Below are positions 3,582 through 37,796 of a stretch of 64,000 nt of DNA, piece after piece (position 1 is the stretch's first letter; each line of letters opens with the position of its first letter). The notes beneath the pieces are model-generated. The model made no database searches, was not told the DNA's origin, and was given only the letters and a program-made list of their open reading frames with translations. The stretch comes from Staphylococcus debuckii (GTDB lineage Bacteria > Bacillota > Bacilli > Staphylococcales > Staphylococcaceae), in contig NZ_CP033460.1 in the NCBI RefSeq assembly GCF_003718735.1, positions 62,001 to 126,000 on the forward strand, given 5' to 3'. A program made the position numbers and the translations under genes.

Positions 3582-3902
3582 ATTACCGCCCTCCTTTATG
3601 TAAAAATCATTTGAGATTGGAATATCTGTGCAGAACGGTTGTCTCTCTTGAGAATCAATTCTTTGCACAGAAAACGATGTGCAAAATATGCATTATCGCT
3701 ATTATAACACGAACATTGAATGTATTCATAATGGTTAATGTTGCACTATTGAAGAAAATTTGAATGATTTGCCAGGATGGCGGAAGTGAAGCGGGGGAGG
3801 TGTTGGCGGAGTGGAGAAGCGAGTGTATGTATAGGGGGGATTGATGGGCAAGGGCGGCGATTAAAGGCGAGAAATGGCGGTGCCGCGAGTTTTATTCCCT
3901 AA
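3582..3902. other. Gene-free stretch with a G-rich tract
   Basis: About 320 bases between the ispE start and the tandem array contain no convincing gene. From about 3778 to 3890 the plus strand is strongly purine-biased, with runs such as GCGGGGGAGG, TAGGGGGGATTG and GGGCAAGGGCGGC. This is unusual for an AT-rich chromosome. I see no clear promoter or structured RNA here. Confidence 0.5.
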
Positions 3903-4090
3903 CTGTATAGGCGCAGCGACTCTGCCTCGACACTTTCGACCCTATCTGTATAAGCGTGAGGTGCGTGTCTCGACACTTTGTCCTCCAACTGTATAAGCGA
4001 CCGGACCAAGCCTCGACACTTTCGCCTCCAACTGTATAAGCGACCGGACCGAGCCTAGACACTTTCTCACACAATTTGCATAACCGACGC
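3903..4090. repeat. 43-bp tandem repeat array (about 4.4 units)
   Basis: Units begin at 3903, 3946, 3989, 4032 and 4075, exactly 43 bases apart. Each starts with CTGTATAAGCGA or a variant (the last reads TTTGCATAACCGA) and carries CCTCGACACTTT or CCTAGACACTTT about 26 bases in. Units 3 and 4 are nearly identical and the outer units diverged. The period is not a multiple of 3, and the overlapping 99-codon frame is not periodic, so this is not a coding repeat. On the minus strand it lies downstream of the veg terminator. It shares the GTGTC(T/G)AG core with the 42-bp array at 37127-37420. Confidence 0.85.
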
Positions 4091-36185: not shown

Positions 36186-37094
36186 TTGAACTTTATTCAA
36201 CTGCATCACGTTAAAACAATACATGAGACCGGTTCTATCACCAAAGCCGCTCATCTTCTGCATATTACGCAATCTGCTCTTAGCCAATCGATTTCAAACT
36301 TAGAAACAGAATTAGATATTCAACTATTCAAACGTCAAAAAAGCGGGACGACTTTAACAGAGCAAGGTCGCCAAATATTTCCTATTATGATGGATTTAAT
36401 CGATCAAGAAACCTTGTTATATGATAAGATTCAATCCTTGAACGCTGAAATGGAAGGCTCGCTGTCGATTGCGACAATTCCTAGTTTGTTCATGACGATT
36501 GTTCCTGGCGTGCTGTCAGTTTTTAAAAAAGATAACCCTAATATAGAGGTGCATATTGTAGAAGCTGAAAACGATGAGATTAAGCAGCTGGTGGCGGCGG
36601 GAGAAGCGGATATCGGCTTGTATTCAATACTGAACGAGGATGACTTGGAGGTGGCAGAAACACAATATACACCATTATTTTCTAGTGCCTTCACTGCAAT
36701 TGTTCCTAAAGATTCAAAGCTGGCTTATTTAAAAAAATTATCCTTAGAGGATATCAAATCTTTTCCTTTTATCTTGTATGATCGTACTTTTTATAAGAAA
36801 AATATTCAGAAGTTCGAAGCGGCCAATGGTCCTATCAACTTGTTATTTTCTACCGATAATGTCGGTGTACTATTCAACTCTGTAGCTGAAGGACTCGGAA
36901 TCAGTATCTTGTCTGACTTGATGGTACAAAACACACCTTTTTATCAGCGCAATATGATTACTACTGTTCCGATTGGCGCTCCTTTCAATCAAATGATCGA
37001 GTTCGGTGTGCTGCACCTGCAACATTCTGATAAGGATAAACTGATTGCAGAATTCAAGAATTATTTAGCGGAAGCTGCGGATAGATTGATATGA
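36186..37094 (+). CDS. LysR-family transcriptional regulator
   Basis: The 302-residue regulator has the LysR winged helix: TIHETGSITKAAHLLHITQS (about residues 12-31) and ALSQSISNLETELDIQLFKR. An effector-binding domain follows (LSIATIPSLFMTIVPGVL onward). The start is TTG at 36186 with AAAGGA 8 bases upstream. It is divergent from the MFS gene, the usual layout for LysR control of a neighbouring transporter. Its ligand is unknown. A 42-bp tandem array starts 33 bases after the stop. Confidence 0.93.
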   Translation: MNFIQLHHVKTIHETGSITKAAHLLHITQSALSQSISNLETELDIQLFKRQKSGTTLTEQGRQIFPIMMDLIDQETLLYDKIQSLNAEMEGSLSIATIPSLFMTIVPGVLSVFKKDNPNIEVHIVEAENDEIKQLVAAGEADIGLYSILNEDDLEVAETQYTPLFSSAFTAIVPKDSKLAYLKKLSLEDIKSFPFILYDRTFYKKNIQKFEAANGPINLLFSTDNVGVLFNSVAEGLGISILSDLMVQNTPFYQRNMITTVPIGAPFNQMIEFGVLHLQHSDKDKLIAEFKNYLAEAADRLI

Positions 37095-37126
37095 GAGCTG
37101 AGGAGGGGGCGCTAAGTTTGGCGCTT

Positions 37127-37420
37127 TCTGGACACTTCTTGAAAATTTGTGTCTAGATTCCGGGGTTTTCTAGACACTTCTCAAAAATTTGTGTCCAGAT
37201 TCGGGGCTTTTCTGGACACTTCTCAATAACTTGTGTCTAGATTCCGGCACTTTCTAGACACTTCCCGATAACTTGTGTCTAGATTCCGGCCTTTTCTGGA
37301 CACTTCCCAAAAACTTGTGTCTAGATTCCGGCGCTTTCTAGACACTTCTCGAAAACTTGTGTCCAGATTCGGGCGCTTTCTAGACACTTCTCAATAACTT
37401 GTGTCTGGATTCCCTACTAA
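37127..37420. repeat. 42-bp tandem array of palindromes (7 units)
   Basis: Units begin at 37127, 37169, 37211, 37253, 37295, 37337 and 37379, with an unvarying 42-base period. Each unit has arms TCT(A/G)GACAC and GTGTC(T/C)(A/G)GA around a 12-base loop such as TTCTCAATAACT. A linker such as TTCCGGCACTTT follows. Almost all differences among the arms fall at positions where G-U pairing keeps the stem on one strand or the other. It lies between the LysR stop codon and the SRP RNA terminator. There are no unique spacers, so it is not a CRISPR array. See the related array at 3903-4090. Confidence 0.92.
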
Positions 37421-37450
37421 TTCATCATCCCGCCCATAAATCTTCGCATT

Positions 37451-37487
37451 AAAAAAGGAAATCAAGGGTTGCGCTCCCTCAATTTCC
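37451..37487 (-). terminator. Terminator downstream of SRP RNA
   Basis: On the minus strand GGAAATTGAGGG pairs with CCCTTGATTTCC around AGCGCAA, followed by TTTTTTAAT. It lies about 35 bases past the mature SRP RNA end, a strong back-up terminator facing the 42-bp array. Confidence 0.85.
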
Positions 37488-37520
37488 TACTTCGCTTCTA
37501 TGTATAAAAATGAATATAAA

Positions 37521-37796
37521 AATACCGCGCAACTTTGCTTCGAATGTGTATCATGAACGTTACCAAAGTCGACAGCTAAATCTCGGCTACCCTACGGCAC
37601 ATATGAGAATCCACTTAATGCTGCTTCCGTCAGGACCTGACATGATTCATGGGTTCATATTGCATAGGACCGAAATCTTCAAACACCTCGTGCTTTGGGC
37701 AGACTTCACAAGTACACACCCTAGGCAAAGTATTCAGTCTCGCATAAGCGGATTTCGAGAACAGGGAACCGCTACCTCCCCACCTAGCACGGCAAG
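37521..37796 (-). ncRNA. ffs: Signal recognition particle RNA (Bacillus-type, with Alu domain)
   Basis: SRP RNA binds Ffh and targets nascent membrane and secreted proteins. The minus strand starts CTTGCCGTGCTAGGTGGGGA at about 37796. The universally conserved domain IV is present: ATGTCAGGTCCTGACGGAAG, then CAGCATTAAGTGGAT. The Alu-like 5' part is retained, so this is the long Firmicute type. The 3' end (CGCGGTATTTTTAT) is at about 37521, giving about 276 bases. End positions are accurate to a few bases. Confidence 0.95.

What the first reader, a model, noticed from the sequence alone, without database searches (positions are those of the whole stretch)
37127..37420. Seven-unit 42-bp array in which every unit is an imperfect palindrome
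The period is exactly 42 bases for all seven units, and each unit carries TCT(A/G)GACAC / GTGTC(T/C)(A/G)GA arms. Most variation in the arms is A/G or T/C, and some of it (for example GG opposite TC) is tolerated as G-U pairs, so the stem seems to be kept while the sequence drifts. That suggests selection for a folded RNA, or for a symmetric protein site repeated with a constant phase (42 bases is 4 helical turns). It is not coding, has no unique spacers, and I know of no named staphylococcal element with this unit.
Basis: seen in the sequence. Interest (0 to 1): 0.72.

Follow-up and report, generated by a model that had tools for sequence, protein, structure and literature searches.

The report
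Dispersed 42-bp palindromic satellite arrays
A small palindromic DNA unit, repeated at exact 42-base steps between genes, turns out to be one of about thirty such arrays in this bacterium; a sister species carries arrays at the same places but mostly with different copy numbers, and the pattern looks more like a DNA-protein docking array than a folded RNA.

Summary
In detail: seven exact 42-bp units at 37127-37409, each TCTRGACAC-N13-GTGTCYRGA. It is not a lone curiosity. I counted 30 arrays (84 units) in this genome and 34 (218 units) in one sister genome, G015. At up to one mismatch none was found in 82 other genomes of the genus. Exact tandem patterns found none in a public genome collection, and plasmids, phages and viral contigs gave none. 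All 30 arrays have a G015 counterpart, 26 with matching genes on both sides; copy number differs at 27 of 30. Six relatives with a LysR orthologue lack the array. Spacing is rigid, arms are conserved, loop and linker sequence is free. The arms vary nearly independently, so the folded-RNA reading is not supported. Arrays lie mostly between convergent or tandem genes, often beyond predicted terminators, inside about 100 bp of fast-evolving DNA that is G-rich on the left and C-rich on the right whatever the gene direction. Best reading: binding lattices for an unidentified DNA-binding protein, with repair or replication events centred on them. Main rival: a parasitic minisatellite. Function is not shown.

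The parts
37127..37157 (.). unit 1, TCTGGACAC-N13-GTGTCTAGA
37169..37199 (.). unit 2, TCTAGACAC-N13-GTGTCCAGA
37211..37241 (.). unit 3
37253..37283 (.). unit 4, perfect 9-bp arms
37295..37325 (.). unit 5
37337..37367 (.). unit 6
37379..37409 (.). unit 7
37095..37126 (+). G-rich left skirt (15 G, 5 C of 32 bases), not seen in array-free relatives
37410..37455 (+). C-rich right skirt (15 C, 2 G of 46 bases), not seen in array-free relatives
36186..37094 (+). LysR-family regulator gene whose 3' end faces the array (HTH_1 and LysR_substrate); context, not part of the repeat
37525..37792 (-). SRP RNA gene (Bacteria_large_SRP), facing the array from the other side; context
37456..37488 (-). intrinsic-terminator-like hairpin and T tail behind the SRP RNA gene, between it and the array; this scan expects 1.0 such site by chance in the region
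3897..4066 (+). related class C array, period 43, four copies, with G-rich left and C-rich right flanks

Best explanation
The array is one locus of a dispersed satellite family found, among the genomes searched, only in this genome and its sister G015. Shown: half-sites TCTRGACAC alternate in orientation with fixed gaps of 13 and 11 bases, so their centres lie 22 and 20 bp apart, about two helical turns, and the dyads lie 42 bp (four turns) apart. The arrays sit at the same gaps between genes in both genomes, often beyond a predicted terminator, and differ in copy number. Inferred: each half-site is contacted by one subunit of an unidentified dimeric, sequence-specific DNA-binding protein that lines one face of the DNA across an array. 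Also inferred: the occupied (or hairpin-prone) array is a site of repeated replication or repair trouble, with single strands exposed on both sides. This would change unit number and leave the fast-evolving skirts that are G-rich on the left and C-rich on the right.
For: Mean entropy over 151 unique internal units is 0.17 bit in arms, 0.90 in loop and 1.15 in linker (units were found by their arms, but no 84-bp step, the sign of a missed unit inside an array, was seen). Loop length is 13 in 290 of 291 and linker 11 in 240 of 246 (arms at most 1 mismatch each), although 139 loop and 79 linker sequences occur; neighbouring flanks show 0.175 indels per substitution (53 of 60 flanks). Arms vary nearly independently. 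Of 91 gene ends facing an array, 60 have a terminator-like hairpin before it, against 8.4 in shuffles. Divergent (promoter) gaps hold 2 of 64 arrays, convergent 35, tandem 26, unclear 1 (my own ORF calls). Copy number differs at 27 of 30 orthologous sites. Skirts: in tandem loci G>C on the left in 25 of 26 and C>G on the right in 24 of 26; array-free tandem gaps have G>C on the left in 27 of 40 and C>G on the right in 14 of 40. Identity between the two genomes rises from 0.829 at 0-49 bp and 0.860 at 50-99 bp from the array to 0.93-0.94 at 200-300 bp, and indels fall from 5.2 and 2.4 to 0.7-1.1 per 100 (44 of 60 sides); array-free intergenic DNA gives 0.936 and 0.45.
Against: No binding protein was found or tested. 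Arm conservation could partly reflect common descent plus turnover inside arrays. Double changes exceed shuffles across all arrays (14 against 8.8, p 0.036), though not within arrays. The array-free control for divergence is small (13 of 47 candidate regions could be aligned), 8 of the 13 are promoter gaps, which are constrained, and partial units at array edges may inflate divergence in the first 50 bp. Only 4 array-free convergent gaps were available for the skew control (G>C left 2 of 4, C>G right 3 of 4). Enrichment between convergent genes is also what a tolerated parasite would show. The skirts show a GCG/GCGG excess (GCGG 62 forward to 5 reverse in G000, 53 to 3 in G015) that simple deamination does not explain.
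Confidence: 0.42

Rival explanations
1. A parasitic or neutral minisatellite: units expand and contract by slippage or hairpin-primed repair and persist in gaps behind genes because they do little harm there. Arms are kept because hairpins drive expansion, not because a protein reads them.
For: Copy number differs at 27 of 30 sites. Units inside an array are more alike (2.47 loop differences of 13) than those of orthologous arrays (3.2) or of different loci (5.29). Arrays are enriched in convergent gaps and rare in promoter gaps, as for pneumococcal repeats, where the authors say this may be seen as a sign of parasitic elements (PMC3049150, passages seen). Array-free orthologous sites exist. 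A slight excess of double changes appears in shuffles across all arrays (p 0.036).
Against: Hairpin drive needs complementarity, not one fixed arm sequence. Yet arm sequence is conserved across loci whose loops differ at about 5 of 13 sites, and double changes are not in significant excess within arrays. Spacing is more rigid than in the DNA next to it.
Confidence: 0.38
2. A transcribed RNA element: hairpins that end transcripts or protect mRNA 3' ends.
For: The seven units of the window fold at -7 to -11.6 kcal/mol on the + strand, with z from -1.45 to -5.33; the whole stretch 37095-37500 has z -9.97. Arrays lie behind genes.
Against: No significant covariation within arrays, and A-C mismatches nearly as common as G-U on the sense strand. 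In the window no T tract follows the stems directly. 60 of 91 gene ends have a terminator-like hairpin of their own before the array. No Rfam match over the array at gathering thresholds.
Confidence: 0.09
3. REP/BIME-type palindromes spread by a RAYT transposase.
For: Palindromic, intergenic, tandem, many copies per genome, species-restricted.
Against: The Y1_Tnp family is absent from this genome; G015 has one partial match over the cut-off (profile positions 56-104 of 121). GTAG/GTGG within 8 nt outside a unit occurs in 9 and 12 of 302 units in the two orientations, CGTC in 0 in the one orientation looked at. Sites are the same in both genomes, so no recent movement is seen.
Confidence: 0.04
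4. Bidirectional Rho-dependent terminators: a read-through transcript from either side meets a C-rich, G-poor stretch after the array.
For: On both strands the exit side is C-rich and G-poor (within 50 bp on the right C 0.34, G 0.12-0.13; on the left the complement, G 0.30, C 0.12-0.13). Opposite-strand pairs of Rut sites are reported in B. subtilis with unknown meaning (PMC12350095, passages seen).
Against: It does not explain the array, its phase, or the fast evolution of the skirts. Rho sites were not modelled.
Confidence: 0.07

Closest known systems
STAR elements of Staphylococcus aureus and S. lugdunensis
   Same: Dispersed intergenic direct repeats in staphylococci; unit number varies while locus stays; unequal abundance among species; function unknown (PMC3532100: abstract, Background and Discussion read).
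   Different: The STAR motif is a 14-bp GC-rich direct repeat with at least 40 bp between copies. It is at chance level in the window (2 matches, 2.07 expected, neither in the array) and its core is in 1 of 178 fetched loci, from another genome. Here the unit is a dyad with a fixed 42-bp step.
BIME/REP arrays
   Same: Palindromic, extragenic, often in regularly spaced composite arrays; reported to bind several proteins (PMC2817692, abstract seen). Placement behind genes is recalled.
   Different: No RAYT gene in this genome, no GTAG/CGTC tag, 13-nt loop, 42-bp step.
BOX elements of pneumococci (boxB arrays)
   Same: Variable tandem modules, over-represented between convergent genes (PMC3049150, passages seen).
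   Different: BOX has boxA and boxC ends. The skirts here share composition but little sequence: of 1128 pairs among 48 G000 skirts free of class B, 7 score 40 or more (0 in shuffles), median 14 against 13.
Operator arrays bound by repressor (laboratory lacO/tetO arrays; recalled)
   Same: Many dyad sites in tandem at fixed phase.
   Different: Natural, dispersed at about 30 loci, protein unknown.

Membership tests
STAR element | 14-bp motif T(G/A/T)TGTTG(G/T)GGCCC(C/A) | tested here: not met
   2 window matches at up to 2 mismatches, none in the array, 2.07 expected; core in 1 of 178 loci, not of G000 or G015
STAR element | dispersed intergenic repeats of variable number | tested here: met
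REP/BIME | cognate RAYT (Y1_Tnp) transposase in the genome | tested here: not met
   0 matches in G000; one partial match (positions 56-104 of 121) in G015
REP/BIME | GTAG or CGTC tag at one end of the dyad | tested here: not met
   GTAG/GTGG near 9 and 12 of 302 units in the two orientations; CGTC near 0, one orientation looked at
REP/BIME | extragenic palindromes, many copies per genome | tested here: met
BOX | conserved boxA and boxC modules at the ends of the array | tested here: not met
   48 skirts of G000 (12 with class B dropped), median pair score 14 against 13 shuffled, 7 of 1128 pairs at 40 or more; pneumococcal box models themselves were not run
CRISPR | unique spacers between identical repeats | tested here: not met
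   linkers are 11 nt in 240 of 246; 79 different linkers among the units
CRISPR | cas genes nearby | not tested
   -
Structured RNA family | compensatory base changes in the stem | tested here: not met
   independence at position 4; 14 double changes against 11.6 (within-array shuffles, p 0.19) or 8.8 (all-array shuffles, p 0.036)
Protein-binding lattice | conserved half-sites with rigid spacing and free spacer sequence | tested here: met
Protein-binding lattice | a protein that binds the half-site | not testable with these tools
   needs pull-down or ChIP

The most novel reading that the evidence does not exclude
The arrays are natural DNA-protein barriers at which replication forks stall or break. 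Each array is then the centre of recurrent resection, which writes a symmetric, strand-polarised (G-rich then C-rich), fast-mutating skirt of about 100 bp into the chromosome and shuffles unit number. Two further satellite classes of the same two genomes (41 and 43 bp) are further sites of the same process.
Probability: 0.17. Interest if true: 0.82.

Novelty: new variant of a known kind. Interest (0 to 1): 0.55.

Why it matters
For STAR, the best-known dispersed intergenic repeat of staphylococci, no function had been described in the paper I read (PMC3532100). Here two close genomes carry arrays at the same loci with different copy numbers, the half-site code is clear, and array-free orthologous sites exist, so function becomes testable by pull-down, ChIP and array deletion. 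The array-centred gradient of divergence and strand composition is unusual in itself: it suggests that a satellite changes mutation in the DNA around it. The loci could also serve as VNTR typing markers for the species pair.

Tried and rejected
RAYT/REP origin: rejected by a Y1_Tnp search of 84 genomes (32 of 84 have a match, G000 none, G015 a partial one) and by the tag test. RNA covariation: tested, not found within arrays. Flanks as one long inverted repeat: own left-right duplex energies rank at chance among other pairings (mean rank 0.50-0.57). Chi sites as the cause of the skirts: GCGG is strand-polarised in the skirts, but AGCGG and GAAGCGG (Chi of B. subtilis and S. aureus, recalled) are not the most enriched words, so left as a lead. 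Origin-proximal placement: the quarter nearest the terminus (taken as opposite dnaA) is poor in arrays (4 of 30, 2 of 34), but KS p is 0.075 and 0.061 and the loci are orthologous, so not independent. Mobile-element link: no match in plasmids, phages or viral contigs (the last with an exact tandem pattern). A class B search used a wrong gap of 7 and was redone with the right one. Paper searches: one search gave no paper; some searches gave capped listings, and no listed title or abstract start described this unit (383 papers hold at least one of the four strings, 15 listed). Passages of PMC6749651 (satellites in prokaryotes) and PMC2267715 (stem-loop families) did not mention it. GC near 39% made me think of S. 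pettenkoferi or a close kin, from recall only.

Full report
WHAT IS THERE. The seven-unit array at 37127-37409 is real and exact. It lies between the 3' end of a LysR-family gene (36186-37094, +) and the terminator-like hairpin and gene of the SRP RNA (37456-37488 and 37525-37792, -), so the two genes converge on it.

A GENOME-WIDE FAMILY. BLAST of the array against its own genome gave 33 matches, itself included. With up to one mismatch the pattern occurs 76 times (+ strand count) in G000 and 210 times in G015. Of 108 genomes of the family searched, the only other match is one single site in G080 of another genus, and none of the 82 other genomes of the genus has one. A looser tandem pattern (up to 2 mismatches) in 157 genomes of the order found these two and one unrelated repeat in G126; the reversed control pattern also hit two genomes, G127 and G130. 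Two tandem patterns, without mismatches, in a collection of one genome for each of 84,980 species found nothing, though records of this genome or very near ones may be left out there. In the fetched stretches I counted 30 arrays with 84 units in G000 and 34 with 218 in G015; these stretches hold 75 and 209 places at up to one mismatch, against 76 and 210 genome-wide. The step is 42 in 52 of 54 and 182 of 184 neighbouring pairs, with 0 to 2 matches in the reversed-sequence control. Arrays without a unit at one mismatch or less, such as one in L027, were left out of this count.

SAME PLACES, MOSTLY DIFFERENT COPY NUMBERS. For each of the 30 G000 arrays, the best-matching neighbouring protein is 95-100% identical to a protein beside a G015 array. 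For 26 of 30 both sides match the same G015 array, for 3 (501919, 1864710, 2214814) one side only, and 512471 matches the left side of one G015 array and the right side of another about 3 kb away; I paired it with the first. Unit number is equal at 3, higher in G015 at 22 and higher in G000 at 5 of 30 sites; pairing 512471 with the second array would make this 3, 23 and 4. At the window's locus it is 7 against 2. Of 37 of 84 genomes with a match to the LysR protein, I looked at the eight best: G000, G015 and six with 73-89% identity. All eight have the SRP RNA gene on the same fetched stretch, and in the six the 700 bp behind the LysR gene hold no array. In the two nearest (G013, G042) there is a short AT-rich gap without the G-rich and C-rich skirts; in G057 and G098 the gap holds other sequence. 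So array and skirts were most likely gained on the branch to this pair (inference).

ANATOMY. Over 151 unique internal units, entropy is 0.17 bit in the arms, 0.90 in the loop and 1.15 in the linker. Loops are 13 nt in 290 of 291 and linkers 11 in 240 of 246 when lengths from 4 to 25 are allowed. At least about 216 sequence changes lie behind 139 loops and 79 linkers, against 7 loops or linkers of another length. In the flanks of the same arrays the ratio is 0.175 indels per substitution (53 of 60 flanks, the others too short or below 65% identity), in array-free intergenic DNA 0.07. Half-site centres are 22 and 20 bp apart, so sites recur about every two helical turns (inference from the spacing).

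NOT AN RNA STEM. The two arms look independent at position 4. Double changes do not exceed shuffles within arrays (14 against 11.6, p 0.19), though they slightly exceed shuffles across all arrays (8.8, p 0.036). On the sense strand of tandem loci there are 45 G-U and 36 A-C cells among 127 units. Of 91 gene ends facing an array (gap 40-600 bp), 60 have a terminator-like hairpin first, against 8.4 in shuffles; for the other 31 none was found at my threshold, the LysR side of the window's own array among them. Single units do fold well as RNA, as any palindrome would.

PLACEMENT AND SKIRTS. By my own ORF calls, 35 arrays lie between convergent genes, 26 between tandem, 2 between divergent and 1 is unclear; one G015 array (606577) is overlapped by an ORF call, probably a start called too early. 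The window's own gene pairs are 5 convergent, 5 divergent and 42 tandem. On the + strand the 50 bp left of an array have G 0.30 and C 0.12-0.13; the 50 bp right of it have C 0.34 and G 0.12-0.13. This fades over about 150 bp and holds when flanks with class B repeats are dropped (48 of 60 and 58 of 68 flanks kept). It holds where both genes point the same way: 25 of 26 left, 24 of 26 right. Array-free tandem gaps show it weakly on the left (27 of 40) and not on the right (14 of 40); only 4 array-free convergent gaps could be looked at (2 of 4 left, 3 of 4 right). The skirts are not locus-specific inverted repeats and mostly share little sequence. They evolve fast: identity between the genomes is 0.829 at 0-49 bp, 0.860 at 50-99 bp and 0.93-0.94 at 200-300 bp, indels 5.2, 2.4 and 0.7-1.1 per 100 (44 of 60 sides, the rest short, with class B, or below 65% identity). 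Array-free gaps give 0.936 and 0.45 (13 of 47 regions alignable, 8 of them promoter gaps, which is a weak point). Partial units at array edges may add to the first bin.

COUSINS. Class B (TATTGGMCA-N14-GTGTCCAATA, step 41 in 42 of 44 pairs less than 200 bp apart) counts 98 forward matches in G000 and 35 in G015 at up to 2 mismatches; scattered one- to three-hit matches occur in 19 of the other 106 genomes. It often adjoins class A at 30 or 23 nt. Counted from GACA (GMCA in class B) to TGTC the inner gap is 15 in both classes. Class C (TCGACAC-N13-TGTATAAGC, step 43), present in the window at 3897-4066 with G-rich and C-rich flanks, counts 12 matches in G000 and 24 in G015 over both strands, with one single hit in G082.

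MECHANISM. Shown: conserved half-sites, rigid phase, free spacers, no significant compensation within arrays, placement often beyond predicted terminators, copy-number difference, and array-centred skew and divergence. Inferred: a dimeric DNA-binding protein, and repair or replication events at the array. A parasitic minisatellite is nearly as likely, and the RNA reading is unlikely. The skew is independent of gene direction, which argues for a process centred on the array rather than on transcription.

COMPARISON AND SCORE. It works like a BIME or an operator array, but is not filed as a REP (no RAYT in this genome, no tag), not as STAR (motif absent) and not as BOX (no shared end modules seen). 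As a kind it belongs to dispersed intergenic tandem repeats; the rigid dyad lattice with polar, fast-evolving skirts is the new part. The species name rests on no call.

Noticed in passing
window 3897-4066: 43-bp class C array, four copies, between a G-rich (64 G, 16 C of 150) and a C-rich (37 C, 11 G of 100) flank; 12 and 24 matches in G000 and G015 and one in 106 other genomes.
   Followed up: partly
L016, L018, L020-L022, L025, L026, L028 and others of G000: Class B repeats (41-bp step) adjoin class A arrays, in most cases at 30 or 23 nt. G000 has 98 B and 76 A matches, G015 35 and 210 (different mismatch limits).
   Followed up: partly
L010, L012, L015, L035 (right of the array): A shared tail resembling CTAGACTGGCAGTAGCTATCTGAACAGAAAATGCGCTTGTTCC, shorter in L035, recurs beside several arrays; it may be another small repeat.
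   Followed up: no
L126 (G067 contig 27, 37995-38273): Another genus of the family has a 62-bp-step array containing GTGTCCAATAAACATGAGATATTGGACAAG, similar to class B.
   Followed up: no
L129 (G126 contig 3, 199144-199250): An unrelated 42-bp-step repeat with GACAAAGAAGGGCGTTCAGTGTC in another family of the order.
   Followed up: no
array skirts of G000 and G015: GCGG is strongly polarised towards the array (62 forward to 5 reverse, 53 to 3), the orientation I would expect of Chi-like sites for breaks inside the array (recalled), though not Chi-specific.
   Followed up: partly
L110 (G015:C1:339000-346900) against L022 (G000:C1:511000-514000): One G000 array site corresponds to two G015 arrays about 3 kb apart, as if a segment lay between two arrays in one genome and not in the other.
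   Followed up: no
window: CTAG is under-represented (98 seen, 225 expected), and 8 of the 18 TCTAGA sites of the window lie in the array.
   Followed up: no
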